From the NCBI GenBank assembly GCA_947465645.1, contig CANIBQ010000007.1, positions 39,896-103,895 on the forward strand: a stretch of DNA of 64,000 nt, written 5' to 3'. The notes beneath the pieces were generated by a model. That model ran no database searches, was not told the DNA's origin, and worked only from the letters and a program-made list of their open reading frames with translations. Below are positions 818 through 63,160 of this stretch, one piece after another (the first letter of the stretch is position 1; every line of letters starts with the position of its first letter). The translations under genes were made by a program, and so were the position numbers. Source of the stretch: Acidobacteriota bacterium (GTDB lineage: Bacteria > Acidobacteriota > Vicinamibacteria > Vicinamibacterales > UBA2999).

Positions 818-1633
818 TTGCCTAGCGTGGAACCCAGGGTGACGATTGCGGCGCTCCAGCAGATGAAACGCGACGGCCGGAAGATCGTCGGCGTGGTGGT
901 GTACGACTACCAGATGGCGCAGATCGTTGACCGCGCCGGCGTCGACCTGGTCTCGGTCGGCGACTCGGTCGGGGTCAGCATGTGGGGGCAGCAGAGCGAG
1001 CTCGAGGTCACGCTCGACCAGATGCTCCTGGCCTGCACGGGGGTGCGGCGCGGCGTCGAACGGGCGCTGGTCAGCTGCGACTTTCCGCTGGCCCCACTGC
1101 AGGAGGGCGCGGATGCGGCGATCGAGGCGGCCTCGCGGCTGATGCGGGACGGCGGCGCGGACATGATCAAGGTCGACGCCGCGCCCGAGTTCCAGGACAC
1201 GGTTCGCGCCATGGCAGGCGCCGGGATCCCGGTGTGGGCCCAGATAACAGGGCACAGGGGGAAGGGGGAAGGGGACAGGGGGACGGAGGACATTGTTGCC
1301 CAGGCAGAGCTGCTCGAGCGGGCCGGGGCGGTGATGCTCGATTTCAGGCACTCCGGACCTGTCGCCGGCCGCGCGGTGGCCCAGGCCGTGTCGATCCCGG
1401 TGCTCGGCGGCCTTGGCGGAGGGCCGTGGCTCGACGGACGGGTCCGGGCAATCGGCAACGCGATCGGCTACCTGGCGCGCGCGCTCGACGACACCACGGA
1501 GCGATATGCCAACGTCGCCCAGATCACCCTCGACGCGATGAAGACCTACGCGGAGGATGTCCGCGAGGCGCGGCAGATCAAGGGCGATCCCGTCGAGCCC
1601 GCGGCGCCAGGCCTGCAGGGCGGGGCCAGCTGA
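818..1633 (+). CDS. PanB-like ketopantoate hydroxymethyltransferase-family protein
   Basis: 271 residues from TTG 818; GTG at 827 or 839 are alternative starts. PanB transfers a hydroxymethyl group from methylene-THF to 2-oxoisovalerate. Seen: VGDSVG (metal Asp49), CDFPL (second metal Asp88), KVD near 118-120 and GIPVWAQ at 137-142, all in PanB positions. The general-base Glu of PanB appears to be Asp175 (VMLDFRHSG). The usual TPQ-type loop is replaced by a charged Gly/Lys/Glu/Arg/Asp stretch at about 145-158, encoded by a degenerate 7-bp purine repeat. The stop overlaps the ATG of the next hydrolase (TGATG), so they are probably translated together. A catabolic paralogue with altered substrate is more likely than the pantothenate enzyme. 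Confidence 0.75.
   Translation: MPSVEPRVTIAALQQMKRDGRKIVGVVVYDYQMAQIVDRAGVDLVSVGDSVGVSMWGQQSELEVTLDQMLLACTGVRRGVERALVSCDFPLAPLQEGADAAIEAASRLMRDGGADMIKVDAAPEFQDTVRAMAGAGIPVWAQITGHRGKGEGDRGTEDIVAQAELLERAGAVMLDFRHSGPVAGRAVAQAVSIPVLGGLGGGPWLDGRVRAIGNAIGYLARALDDTTERYANVAQITLDAMKTYAEDVREARQIKGDPVEPAAPGLQGGAS
1248..1291 (+). repeat. In-frame degenerate 7-bp purine repeat inside the PanB-like gene
   Basis: About six units of a GGGGAAG/GGGACAG-type heptamer run through the coding sequence and give the residues around 145-158. Period and style match the intergenic short-word repeats elsewhere in the window. Confidence 0.6.
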
Positions 1634-2508
1634 TGGCGACCGCGATGATCGACGGGATCGCGACCCATTACGACGTGATCGGCACGGGGCCGCCGCTGCT
1701 GATGTTCTCGCCCGGCGGCTTCGACGCCACCATCGGCAAGTGGCGCGTGCAGGGCATCTACGCGACCATCAAGCCGCTCGACCACCTTCCCGGCAGCTAC
1801 ACCTGCATCGTCTTTGACCGGCGTGAGAGCGGCGAGTCGGGCGGTCGCGTCGAGCCGCTGTCGTGGGCGGGCTACGCGGCGCAGGGAAAGGGGCTGCTGG
1901 ATCAGCTGGGGATCCCGCGCGCGCGCGTCATGGGCGCCTGCATGGGCGTCTCGGTCGCGATCGCGTTCGGCGTCGCGTATCCGGAGGCGACCTCGAGCCT
2001 GGTGCTCTATTTTCCCGTGGGCGGCGCCCACTACCGCATCAACGGCCGCCGCCGTTTTGCCGAGCACCTCGCCTACGTGCAGGAGCACGGTCTTGCCGGC
2101 GTCGTCTCGCTGGTGACCGCCGAAGGCCAACCCTTCAACCAGGATCCGAGAGGGGGTCCCTGGGCGACGGTGATCAAGCGCGACCCCGCGTTCGCCTATT
2201 GGTACGCCCGCGCGGATGTCGAGCAGTACACCGCCATGGCCACCGCGAGCGCGCAGGCGCTCTTCGATCGCGACACCGCGCCCGGCGCGGCGCCCGAAGA
2301 ACTGTTTCGTCTGGAGATCCCCGCGCTGATCGTGCCGGGCAGGGACAAGGCGCACGCGACCTCAGCCGCGCGCTACCTCGAGGAATGCCTGCCGCGCGCG
2401 GAGTACTGGGATATCGCGGTCGCCGATCAGACGGAAGCGGCAGTCGCCCCGCGGCTAATCGATTTCATGACACGGGCCACGGAGACACGGAGTCACGGAG
2501 ACACCTAG
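1633..2508 (+). CDS. Alpha/beta hydrolase with Cys nucleophile motif
   Basis: 291 residues; ATG 1633 overlaps the stop of the PanB-like gene, which decides the start. The frame stays open upstream, but that part only shadows the preceding gene. Seen: an oxyanion segment FSPGG near 26-29, VFDRRESGESG near 60-70, nucleophile elbow GACMG at 101-105 with Cys103 where Ser is usual, and PGRDKAH with Asp238 and His241 as likely acid and base. Cys in the elbow is known from dienelactone hydrolases. The last 11 residues (ATETRSHGDT) come from a repeat arm and are probably not part of the fold. Coupling to a PanB-like enzyme and a divergent aldolase suggests catabolism of an oxo-acid or ester. Confidence 0.8.
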   Translation: MATAMIDGIATHYDVIGTGPPLLMFSPGGFDATIGKWRVQGIYATIKPLDHLPGSYTCIVFDRRESGESGGRVEPLSWAGYAAQGKGLLDQLGIPRARVMGACMGVSVAIAFGVAYPEATSSLVLYFPVGGAHYRINGRRRFAEHLAYVQEHGLAGVVSLVTAEGQPFNQDPRGGPWATVIKRDPAFAYWYARADVEQYTAMATASAQALFDRDTAPGAAPEELFRLEIPALIVPGRDKAHATSAARYLEECLPRAEYWDIAVADQTEAAVAPRLIDFMTRATETRSHGDT

Positions 2509-2545
2509 GTTTAGGACTCCGTGCCTCTGTGCCTCCGTGGCCCGT
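2472..2545. repeat. 8-bp word hairpin between convergent genes; likely bidirectional terminator
   Basis: Arms 2472-2500 and 2517-2545 are reverse complements at 26 of 29 positions. Each arm is built from CACGGAGA-type octamers. The loop holds the stop codon of the upstream hydrolase and the right arm ends 1 bp before the stop of the convergent gene. The same word recurs at 22679-22708. Confidence 0.8.
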
Positions 2546-2546
2546 T

Positions 2547-3467
2547 TTACAGGTCAGGAAAGAGTTCGTCGACCGAGAGCTGCCGCGCGATGATCCCCTG
2601 TTCCACGCTGTGCTGGATCACGGCTTCGAGCATCCGCCGGTTCGGCTCGATGCCGTAGGGCAGCGGGTCGCCGATCTCGTCCATCACCTGCCTGAAAAAC
2701 CGATCGTCCGGTGACGGCTGCGCGATGCCCGCCGCGAGGCGATCGACGTAGAGCCGCTTCGCCTCGGTGAAGGCGTCGAAGATATCCGATGCAAGACCCG
2801 GATGCGCCTTCAGCAGCGCATCCTTCACCACGACCGTGTGGTTGATGGGATAGAGGCCGCGGCTCCGCAACGCGGCACGGCCTGCCTGAGATGCGTTGGG
2901 GATCAGCGGCTTCACATCAGGCGAATCCACCTGCACGCCGATCGCCGCCGCGATCTCGCCAGACACGAGCATGTCCTCGAGCTTCTTGCCCGTGTCGACC
3001 GGGACGACGTTCGAGGGTGGCACGTATTCGGCGACGTGCTCGTCGCCTGACAACACCCACGTCACACGGCGCAGGTCCACGCCGTACTCGTGCTGGAGGA
3101 TAGCCCGCGCCCACAGGCCTGTCGTCACCGTGTATCCGCGGTTGACCCCGACGCGCCGGCCCTCGAGATCCTTCGGGGTGGTGACGACGCCGGGGTTGTG
3201 GACGATCGCGCCGTGGTGGAAGGCGCGCATCGGGAAGATCGGCAGGGCCGTGAACGCCTTGCCGTGCGCCTTCGCGCAGATGTAGGTGGTGATCGCCATC
3301 TCGGAGATGTCGAACTCGAGCCCGCGGACCATGCGCCGGAAGGCGCTGATGATCGCCGGCACCTCTTCGAAGTCGAAATCGAAGGTGCGCGGCGTCACCG
3401 TGCCGTTCTTGAGCGCCTCGGTGTGACCGCGCGTCACCAGCGCGGTCTTGAGCCTGGGTCGATCCAC
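2547..3467 (-). CDS. 4,5-dihydroxyphthalate decarboxylase-like / NMT1-type binding-fold protein
   Basis: 306 residues. The fold is that of periplasmic binding proteins, shared by Pht5-type 4,5-dihydroxyphthalate decarboxylases and by NMT1/THI5-like proteins. Seen: FDFEEVP near 30, FDISEMAITTYICAKAHGK near 52-70, a central FHHGAIVHN segment, LEGRRVGVNRGYTVTTG near 100-117 and YPINHTVVVK near 210. These are typical of the Pht5-like group. There is no signal peptide, so a cytoplasmic enzyme or sensor is as likely as a transport protein. It is convergent with the hydrolase across a strong hairpin. Aromatic-acid metabolism is an inference. Confidence 0.75.
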   Translation of the reverse strand: MDRPRLKTALVTRGHTEALKNGTVTPRTFDFDFEEVPAIISAFRRMVRGLEFDISEMAITTYICAKAHGKAFTALPIFPMRAFHHGAIVHNPGVVTTPKDLEGRRVGVNRGYTVTTGLWARAILQHEYGVDLRRVTWVLSGDEHVAEYVPPSNVVPVDTGKKLEDMLVSGEIAAAIGVQVDSPDVKPLIPNASQAGRAALRSRGLYPINHTVVVKDALLKAHPGLASDIFDAFTEAKRLYVDRLAAGIAQPSPDDRFFRQVMDEIGDPLPYGIEPNRRMLEAVIQHSVEQGIIARQLSVDELFPDL

Positions 3468-62395: not shown

Positions 62396-62401
62396 TCCTC
62401 A

Positions 62402-62998
62402 TTGTCCCTTCCTGAACCTCTATCGAGGCTGGTCGAGCAGCTCCAGAAGCTACCTGGCATCGGCGCCAAGAGCGCGCAGCGTCTCGCGTTCCATCTGTTG
62501 CGGAACCCGCGCGAGGATTGCGAGCGCCTGTGCGACGCGATCCGCGACGTCAAGGAGCGGGTGACCTACTGCTCGGCGTGCAACAACATCACCGACGCCG
62601 ACCCGTGCGCGTTCTGCACCAGCGACTCCCGCAACCAGCGCCTCATCTGCGTGGTCGAGGAGCCGCAGAACGTCTCGGTGGTCGAGAAGACGCGGGAGTT
62701 CCGCGGCGTGTATCACGTGCTGATGGGAGCGCTCTCGCCGCTGCACGGCGTCGGGCCCGACGACCTCAAGATCAAAGGGCTGCTGCAGCGGGTGGGCGTG
62801 GGCGGTGTCGACGAGGTGATCCTGGCGACCAACCCGACCGTCGAGGGCGAAGCGACCGCGCTCTACCTCGCACGGCTGCTCAAGCCGCTCGGCGTGCGGG
62901 TGACGAGGATTGCGATGGGCATCCCGGTCGGGTCGGATCTAGAGTATGCGGACGAAGTGACGATGACCCGCGCCATGGAAGGTCGGCGCGAGCTCTGA
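62402..62998 (+). CDS. recR: Recombination protein RecR
   Basis: 198 residues from TTG 62402; no ATG is available near the conserved N-terminus. Helix-hairpin-helix LQKLPGIGAKSAQRLAFHLL, zinc finger YCSACNNITDADPCAFC (about 56-72), Toprim LICVVEEPQNVSVVEKT and Walker-like end (ATNPTVEGEATALYLARLL). Works with RecF and RecO in gap repair. Confidence 0.95.
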   Translation: MSLPEPLSRLVEQLQKLPGIGAKSAQRLAFHLLRNPREDCERLCDAIRDVKERVTYCSACNNITDADPCAFCTSDSRNQRLICVVEEPQNVSVVEKTREFRGVYHVLMGALSPLHGVGPDDLKIKGLLQRVGVGGVDEVILATNPTVEGEATALYLARLLKPLGVRVTRIAMGIPVGSDLEYADEVTMTRAMEGRREL

Positions 62999-63017
62999 TG
63001 CGCCGCATTCTTGAATA

Positions 63018-63160
63018 TTGATTTGGGATTGGTGATTCGTTGATGATGTGTGATTGTCGATTGGCGATTGGTGCGACGGCGCTGGTCTCGACGATCGCGA
63101 TGTAATCAACAATCAAGAATCGCAAATCACAACGAATCAAGAATCAAGAATCGCGAATCG
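63018..63160. repeat. 7-bp word hairpin (AATCAAG/TTGATT) after recR
   Basis: Left half 63018-63071 (GATTGG/GATTCG words) and right half 63104-63160 (AATCAAG, AATCGCG words) are complementary in register. The right half ends 3 bp before the next ATG. Confidence 0.8.

What the first reader, a model, noticed from the sequence alone, without database searches (positions are those of the whole stretch)
1248..63160. More than twenty short-word repeat elements, several families, one architecture
Seen directly: degenerate tandem units of 7, 8 or 9 bp at 2472-2545, 8244-8325, 10118-10195, 11879-11927, 19308-19396, 21605-21706, 22679-22708, 23267-23310, 56029-56090, 58117-58190, 60285-60361, 63018-63160 and inside genes at 1248-1291 and 61497-61696. 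The words differ but many elements share one plan: an array, a short loop, then the reverse-complement array, placed between the stop of one gene and the start of the next. Heptamer arrays (STRR) are known in heterocystous cyanobacteria. A different word at each place with a kept hairpin suggests a process that makes or copies arrays, not one spreading sequence.
Basis: partly seen in the sequence, partly recalled or inferred. Interest (0 to 1): 0.75.

Follow-up and report, generated by a model that had tools for sequence, protein, structure and literature searches.

The report
Spreading short-word DNA hairpin repeats
This stretch of bacterial DNA is dotted with short repeats, many of them mirror-image hairpins at gene ends; many are copies of spreading sequence families, each built on its own 7- to 9-letter word, that replace one another at the same spots in related species by a mechanism not yet identified.

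Summary
Short-period arrays crowd the gaps between genes of this window (closest to Vicinamibacteria, Acidobacteriota): 11 arrays against 0.3 in shuffled DNA. Eight of the 12 listed intergenic elements fold as hairpins. 'A different word at each place' fails: 8 of 13 compared elements form four copy pairs, one copy lying inside dnaX. In a relative, G007, 201 gap arrays fall into 32 word clusters, 22 of them single. Inverted pairs outnumber direct ones 53 to 7, with constant polarity per family; two of five families laid out show shared outer ends or unit variants in register. One arm pattern, AACCACRRAGRNCACRRAG, occurs in 19 of 115 genomes of another phylum, several with their own spelling. 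Orthologous gaps often hold different families. Tyrosine transposases of these genomes carry other terminal repeats, and a reverse transcriptase is not needed. A nested 140-bp core, seen in relatives only, shows compensatory change in 28 of 30 inner pairs without G-U excess, suggesting DNA-level copying between arms. New variant of REP/STRR-like dispersed repeats; mover unknown.

The parts
2469..2545 (.). Word hairpin, 8-mer CACGGAGN, arms GGCCACGGAGACACGGAG / CTCCGTGCCTCCGTGGCC; same word type as the cross-phylum AACCACRRAG arms, but with a GGCC end and not AACC
   Evidence: TRF; fold z -9.2; its arms match 22676-22712 at 28/31 and 27/29
22676..22712 (.). Single arm, copy of the 2469 arm
   Evidence: not a significant hairpin (7 of 100 shuffles as good)
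8244..8325 (.). Array, 8-mer GGTGCGAG, with the aperiodic interruption GTGCGTCCGA
   Evidence: TRF; aligned over 69 columns with 61620-61700 including the interruption
61620..61700 (.). Inverted copy of the 8244 array, inside the open frame of dnaX (linker)
   Evidence: at the corresponding place (1120-1570 bp from the dnaX start, frame not checked) 7 of 54 relatives have an array of score 40 or more, L001 with the same word
10117..10195 (.). Word hairpin, 8-mer GTNGCTGG
   Evidence: fold z -9.5; aligned with 56027-56092 over 64 columns
56027..56092 (.). Word hairpin, copy of the 10117 hairpin, between the semialdehyde dehydrogenase gene and lysC
   Evidence: fold z -4.3
11877..11928 (.). Array, heptamer AGTAGGC, with a phase break shared with 23265
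   Evidence: TRF; not a hairpin
23265..23312 (.). Inverted copy of the 11877 array
   Evidence: not a hairpin
19308..19396 (.). Word hairpin, heptamer GAACCGA/GAACGCA
   Evidence: fold z -5.8; inverted-repeat score 96 for its gap, maximum of 40 shuffles 32
21605..21706 (.). Word hairpin, 9-mer CACGAAGGT, outer end AACCACGAAGG; fits the cross-phylum arm type
   Evidence: fold z -7.7; arm patterns elsewhere
58117..58190 (.). Word hairpin, heptamer TTGAGCC, upstream of dapA
   Evidence: fold z -3.8
60285..60361 (.). Word hairpin, heptamer AACTCCC, between SRP RNA and dnaX
   Evidence: fold z -6.9; SRP RNA; the same gap in relatives
63018..63160 (.). Word hairpin, heptamer GATTGGN / AATCAAG, after recR
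   Evidence: fold z -3.8
1248..1291 (+). Not an element: G-rich coding stretch of panB

Best explanation
These are several families of short dispersed repeats. In the best-resolved families the heritable unit is an arm of about 25-37 bp built of 3-5 near-copies of a 7-, 8- or 9-bp word. Arms are copied to gene boundaries, often as an inverted pair with constant polarity, so that a hairpin with a loop of about 24 bp stands between a stop and the next start. Shown: copy pairs, shared outer ends or in-register variants in some families, polarity, gap preference, and different families in the same gap of sister genomes. Inferred: copies spread as folded single-stranded DNA, as proposed for REPINs, and the two arms are rewritten from each other by template switching at the DNA level, which lets the word drift in both arms and makes unit number and loop change fast. 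The moving enzyme is unknown and is probably not the resident RAYT-type transposase. Any terminator-like use would be secondary.
For: Copy pairs in the window with shared aperiodic bases. ACACGGAGG ends with AACCAC at the outer edge: 13 of 17 in G007, 7 of 9 in G009; AATCCGC ends with the variant GAGG in unit 2: 6 of 10 and 3 of 5 (some G009 ends are orthologues of G007 ends). 53 inverted against 7 direct same-family pairs; all 23 hairpins in the 7 genome-family groups with two or more keep one polarity; loop median 24 bp. Gaps with arrays: G007 tandem 122 of 471, convergent 23 of 85, divergent 14 of 129; G009 40 of 240, 8 of 35, 9 of 72; G002 24 of 129, 4 of 22, 3 of 53. Of 96 orthologous G007/G009 gaps, 39 have an array in at least one: 9 same family, 7 different, 23 in one only. 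The same arm type and polarity in another phylum: 19 of 115 genomes, reversed-pattern control 0. Nested core: 28 of 30 inner pairs with changes on both sides; G-U 14, A-C 18.
Against: No mobile intermediate, target-site duplication or enzyme was found. Loops of same-family elements are mostly unrelated: 9 of 40 pairs above z 3 (2 of 370 between families), 7 of the 9 in one family where the shared piece is more word, so whole-hairpin copying is not shown. Arms of one element are not consistently more alike than arms of different elements. Register is weak in AAATCTG: the variant unit stands at one place in only 10 of 30 ends; ACATCCTC and ACCAGCC vary in unit number. The word clusters are single-linkage; the largest (113 arrays) chains different words. 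The G-U test on word hairpins is weak (40 against 31, p 0.34). The core lies in relatives, not in the window, and its structure was predicted from the alignment on which it was counted.
Confidence: 0.6

Rival explanations
1. De novo generation: slippage and fold-back at each gap make a new word array from the local sequence; sharing of words is coincidence or bias.
For: 22 of 32 word clusters in G007 are single arrays. In one gap the sister genome has a single TGCAAGAATACA where G007 has an AAGAATGC hairpin (L224_1666). In the recR gap L020 has TAATTTCC where L041 has a CTAATTC array.
Against: 179 of 201 arrays in G007 fall in multi-array clusters (single linkage, so an upper figure; by exact consensus ACCAGCC has 24 and AAATCTG 22). 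Shared aperiodic bases, outer ends and polarity. The same arm in two phyla. The local-seed cases can equally be remnants after loss.
Confidence: 0.15
2. They are REP/TIR elements moved by the resident RAYT-type tyrosine transposase (Y1_Tnp).
For: At least 2 arrays in the sampled locus in 26 of 38 genomes with Y1_Tnp against 2 of 17 without (Fisher 1e-4; 9 of 13 against 1 of 13 among genomes of 3-4.5 Mb, p 0.004; with a threshold of 3 arrays p 0.015). The array-poor genome G006 has no Y1_Tnp. One Y1_Tnp locus, L131, has two gap arrays about 1 kb from the gene.
Against: 16 of 17 Y1_Tnp loci are flanked by their own inverted repeats (the 17th is cut by a contig end) and 0 of 17 carry the five arm patterns tested. 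G007 has one Y1_Tnp among its own GTAG hairpins, one 14-mer of which occurs 65 times in 992 kb, yet many word families. L010 and L023 have arrays in genomes without a detected Y1_Tnp. Genome size correlates with both; completeness of these genomes, mostly MAGs, is not told, and they are not phylogenetically independent.
Confidence: 0.15
3. They are selected RNA hairpins (terminators or mRNA 3' ends) that converge on hairpin form.
For: Depletion in divergent gaps, clear in G007 and G002, slight in G009; 91 of 201 measured array-to-stop distances in G007 are 10 bp or less; stable folds.
Against: No significant G-U over A-C preference in 37 tandem-gap hairpins (40 against 31) nor in the core (14 against 18). 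Many arrays have no second arm. Absence from promoters is also expected of neutral insertions.
Confidence: 0.2
4. A reverse transcriptase or telomerase-like enzyme writes the words from an RNA template.
For: Iterated short words with variable positions.
Against: RVT_1 found in 15 of 55 genomes and in none of the element-rich G007, G009, G010; assembly gaps are possible.
Confidence: 0.05

Closest known systems
GGGAATC heptamer repeats of Xanthomonas (PMC4692102; passages and the whole of section 10 seen)
   Same: Heptamer arrays, mostly of four units, with variable positions; 186 in Xcc, 70 inverted pairs close together; intergenic, rare between divergent genes, nearer to the preceding ORF; prominent ones not at the same genes in a sister species.
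   Different: One word studied per genome; no conserved arm end reported in what I saw; here many families coexist, with 8- and 9-mer words too.
STRR of heterocystous cyanobacteria (recalled; a passage of PMC4692102 says three tandem heptanucleotides are reported in Calothrix)
   Same: Several degenerate tandem heptamers in one genome.
   Different: Inverted plan, arm copies and gap-by-gap turnover are tested here and not, to my knowledge, there.
REPINs / GTAG and CGTC REPs (PMC3116915, PMC3733652; passages seen)
   Same: Short intergenic repeats, inverted doublets forming hairpins, high copy number.
   Different: A REP is itself a palindrome with a GTAG or CGTC tag, GTAG ones with a cognate RAYT; the word arms seen here lack the tag and have no RAYT beside them in 17 loci.
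TIR repeats of TIRYT transposases, including Acidobacteria (PMC3733652; passages seen)
   Same: Dispersed inverted repeats in Acidobacteria tied to tyrosine transposases.
   Different: The inverted repeats beside the 16 Y1_Tnp genes here do not match the word arms.
TAACTGA repeats of Beggiatoaceae (PMC4679880; passages seen)
   Same: A heptamer array upstream of starts, scattered over distant phyla.
   Different: 169 direct sets and one indirect in the genome described; one word.
Small dispersed repeats (SDR) of Nostoc (recalled, and named in a passage of PMC3116915; the paper is not held)
   Same: Very small mobile repeats (recalled).
   Different: Could not be compared.

Membership tests
REP/REPIN | Palindromic repeat of 20-40 bp tagged by GTAG or CGTC | tested here: not met
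   Read by eye in five families: arms are word arrays without the tag at the outer end; GTAG-type hairpins exist beside them
REP/REPIN | Cognate RAYT flanked by the same repeat | tested here: not met
   0 of 17 Y1_Tnp loci carry any of five arm patterns; other families and other genomes not tested
REP/REPIN | Inverted doublets forming hairpins | tested here: met
   53 inverted against 7 direct pairs
STRR / heptamer SSR | Intergenic tandem heptamers far above chance, many copies of the word | tested here: met
   Period 7 in 117 of 201 gap arrays of G007; shuffles
STRR / heptamer SSR | Period of exactly seven | tested here: inconclusive
   Periods 8 (38) and 9 (41) are also frequent
MITE | Terminal inverted repeats plus target-site duplication | tested here: inconclusive
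   Inverted arms yes; no clear duplication in the few one-sided gaps that I read by eye
CRISPR array | Repeats of about 30 bp with unique spacers and cas genes | not tested
   Units of 7-9 bp without spacers make it irrelevant

The most novel reading that the evidence does not exclude
A cross-phylum class of word-armed hairpin elements, distinct from REP/RAYT, spreads by an unidentified system. Each genome homogenises its arms into its own dialect (CACGGAGG, CACAAAGG, CACGAAGG, CACAGAGG around one AACCAC terminus and one polarity). The arms of a hairpin are rewritten from each other at the DNA level, and elements nest one inside the loop of another, building concentric palindromes such as the 300-bp composites of G007. 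This would be a general process that keeps replacing bacterial gene boundaries.
Probability: 0.35. Interest if true: 0.82.

Novelty: new variant of a known kind. Interest (0 to 1): 0.6.

Why it matters
Tandem heptamers in cyanobacteria have been known since about 1990 (recalled), and in the passages that I saw their origin is left open. Here the families have copies, ends, polarity and differing sister gaps, so the origin becomes testable. If the arms really are rewritten by DNA templating, this is a natural, genome-wide record of palindrome correction, and a warning that compensatory change alone does not prove a functional RNA. The elements also reshape gene boundaries and enter coding sequence (the dnaX linker).

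Tried and rejected
Rejected or disfavoured: one word per place; RAYT as the mover on the evidence at hand; reverse transcriptase. Ku was found in 43 of 55 genomes; it does not separate rich from poor by itself, since G006 is poor and has Ku. Known RNA families: in the window only a tRNA and SRP RNA; none at six composite-bearing loci. Cargo between far inverted arms: no repeated gene; the places held one resident gene, nested arms or nothing called. Plasmids: 18 records with weak matches, none covering 80% of a window element; none for a composite. An exact two-hairpin pattern of the core: 0 viral contigs. A loose regex for the core gave 181 mostly false places; a strict one gave 16, of which I aligned 14 and dropped two short ones (L142, L148). 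PMC3174227 (Solibacter; passages) reports many short repeats, mostly under 50-100 nt, without the words described.

Limits. G007 and G002 stretches were first chosen because they held CACGGAG matches, so that word is over-sampled there. In the dnaX census L001 (masked bases) and L059 (no upstream DNA) were dropped. L001-L063 are treated as Vicinamibacteria by dnaX identity (62% or more to the window), not by checked taxonomy; a few titles disagree (L003, L004, L039). The phylum is that of the genome holding L069, whose record is labelled Akkermansia; the label was not checked. The gap classes depend on a TRF threshold: by eye several one-sided cases (rows 7, 19, 43, 44, 45) hold a weak copy of the same family, and rows 14, 60, 86 look like coding or GC-rich noise. 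Gene calls are my own GC3-based ones, and starts are uncertain. Statements that something is not in print rest only.
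Full report
Where it comes from. The dnaX product of the window finds its eight best relatives at 79-84% identity, most titled 'Acidobacteria bacterium', and many further hits are named gp6 or Vicinamibacteria. No whole genome is held for the window. The 80 loci around dnaX, 63 of which I treat as Vicinamibacteria, and longer stretches of four related genomes served for comparison: G007 (the genome of L020), G009 (of L041), G002 (of L003) and G006 (of L063).

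The observation. Tandem Repeats Finder and direct reading confirm arrays at all 12 intergenic places. Gap neighbourhoods hold 11 arrays against a mean of 0.3 in 100 shuffles. Across the window and the 63 loci, arrays of score 40 or more number 138 in 184,685 gap bases (0.75 per kb) and 50 in 688,306 coding bases (0.07 per kb); period 7 makes up 88 of the 138. Eight of 12 elements are significant hairpins and four are not. The stretch in panB at 1248-1291 is ordinary coding sequence.

Words are families. Pairwise alignment of 13 window elements gives four copy pairs. The array at 8244-8325 and the stretch 61620-61700 inside dnaX align over 69 columns, including an aperiodic GTGCGTCCGA. The hairpins at 10117 and 56027 align over most of their length. 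The arrays at 11877 and 23265 share a phase break. The arms at 2469 and 22676 share bases beyond the array. In G007, 201 gap arrays in 992 kb (120 more in coding calls, at a ninth of the density) fall into 32 clusters, 22 of them single arrays; clustering is single-linkage and the largest cluster chains several words. The commonest consensus words are ACCAGCC (24 arrays) and AAATCTG (22). G006 is poor: 13 gap arrays in 418 kb, one of period 7. The dictionary differs by genome: CACGGAGNCACGGAG occurs 19 times in G002, 9 in G007, once in G008 and not at all in five others; the reversed control gave 2 in G002, 3 in G007 and 3 in G003.

Arms have anatomy. I read the arms of five families in G007 and G009 from outside towards the loop and recounted three. 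ACACGGAGG ends read AACCACGGAGGACACGGAGGACACGGAGG with little change; AACCAC stands at the outer edge in 13 of 17 in G007 and 7 of 9 in G009. AATCCGC ends have GAGG in unit two in 6 of 10 and 3 of 5. AAATCTG is less sharp: 26 of 30 ends lie within four substitutions of one 33-mer, but that 33-mer is periodic, and a variant unit at one fixed place is seen in 10 of 30. ACATCCTC and ACCAGCC vary in unit number. Some G009 ends are orthologues of G007 ends. Pairs in one gap are inverted in 53 cases and direct in 7; all 23 hairpins in the seven genome-family groups with two or more keep one polarity; the loop has median 24 bp. Loops are mostly unrelated.

Place. Arrays occupy 122 of 471 tandem, 23 of 85 convergent and 14 of 129 divergent gaps in G007, 24 of 129, 4 of 22 and 3 of 53 in G002; in G009 the contrast is slight (40 of 240, 8 of 35, 9 of 72). 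Of 201 measured distances from an array edge to the stop codon it follows in G007, 91 are 10 bp or less.

Turnover. The gap between SRP RNA and dnaX holds an array in 22 of 62 genomes, the window included, with 20 distinct consensus words, against a shuffled mean of 0.9 and maximum of 3. The gaps at lysC, dapA, recR and ebfC also carry more arrays than the shuffled mean. In three relatives at 85-88% nucleotide identity one gap holds an AATCCGC hairpin in L020 and L041 and a 9-bp-word hairpin of another family in L031, between the same two genes. Over 96 orthologous gaps of G007 and G009 (flanks 88.8% identical), 39 carry an array in at least one: 9 the same family, 7 a different one, 23 in one genome only (threshold caveats under Tried and rejected).

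Beyond the phylum. AACCACGRAGGNCACGRAGG occurs in 6 of 247 sampled genomes of the phylum of G007, G007 itself included, and in 37 stretches of viral contigs; there it is mostly a single arm, 2 of 38 matches having an inverted partner within 400 bp. The wider AACCACRRAGRNCACRRAG occurs in 19 of 115 genomes of the phylum of the genome holding L069, with 0 for the reversed control in all. In genomes with many copies the spelling is genome-specific: G378 CACAAAGG, G381 mostly CACGGAGG/A, G361 mostly CACGAAGG, G339 CACAGAGG. In the listed places I count nine inverted pairs within 200 bp, all with the polarity of the window's hairpins; G339 and G378 have direct neighbours instead. Six arm strings occur in no paper of the library.

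Who moves them. Y1_Tnp (PF01797) is found in 38 of the 55 Vicinamibacteria genomes searched. At least two arrays occur in the sampled locus in 26 of those 38, against 2 of 17 without it. Yet 16 of 17 Y1_Tnp loci have their own flanking inverted repeats, none carries the arm patterns tested, only L131 has gap arrays in its 3.3 kb, and in G007 the gene sits among classic GTAG hairpins. Reverse transcriptases were not found in the element-rich G007, G009 and G010.

How arms stay alike. In G007, 13 places (and one in G009) show a core of about 140 bp; in the seven that I laid out in full it lies inside the loop of word hairpins. It has an outer stem, two small nearly constant hairpins and a long inner stem. 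Inner-arm identity between copies falls to 0.30 with median 0.47, while 93.9% of cells over all 55 pairs stay paired. 32 of 55 pairs, 28 of them in the 30-pair inner stem, have changes on both sides; none of 500 shuffles reaches any of the five measures, and slid versions pair 30-40% of cells. The structure was predicted on the same alignment and the copies are related, so these controls are not probabilities. In the inner stem G-U pairs number 14 and A-C 18. An RNA kept by selection on that strand should favour G-U, so I read this as DNA-level maintenance, by strand switching or inverted copying; that reading is inference. The word hairpins show no significant bias either (40 against 31 in 37 tandem-gap hairpins, p 0.34), which is weak evidence. 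Change of the word in both arms, as at dnaX in L020 against L041, fits the same mechanism; the comparison of arms within and between elements does not decide it.

Verdict. Several spreading families of short-word arms, close in habit to the Xanthomonas GGGAATC repeats and to REPINs, but failing the REP features tested (GTAG or CGTC tag, cognate RAYT). Copying is well supported for the window pairs and for the best-resolved families. The single-strand route, the arm-to-arm rewriting of word hairpins and the mover remain inferred or unknown.

Noticed in passing
window 16909-16991, 18714-18740, 47377-47453: Non-word REP-like repeats: a hairpin pair GTGGGGCGAGCC..GGCTCGCC with inverted outer arms, and a GTAG-type GGCGGGTCC..GGACCCGCC repeat identical over 27 bp at 18714 and 47377.
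   Followed up: partly
L188:7503-7641 and 13 further places in G007/G009 loci: A cross-shaped 140-bp core with many compensatory changes and no G-U excess, nested in word hairpins; no Rfam match at the six loci searched.
   Followed up: partly
window 25015-31791: A 2258-aa hybrid histidine kinase with 11.8 copies of a 276-bp unit (80% matches) coding HAMP domains, then GAF, HisKA, HATPase and three receiver domains.
   Followed up: no
L121-L137: 16 of 17 Y1_Tnp genes, from seven Vicinamibacteria genomes, sit between their own inverted repeats, several of GGGGTCAGACCCC or GGCCGGGTCC type, like published REPtrons/TIRtrons.
   Followed up: partly
L004, L005, L008, L012, 1120-1570 bp from the dnaX start: Heptamer arrays of AAATCCC/AAAGCCC type where the window has its dnaX linker array (frame not checked); L004 and L008 carry the same words upstream of dnaX.
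   Followed up: no
L278 (G378): In the genome with CACAAAGG arms, neighbouring DNA shows further word arrays (GGGACNACT, CTCCGTT; read by eye), and arms recur about 96 bp apart.
   Followed up: no
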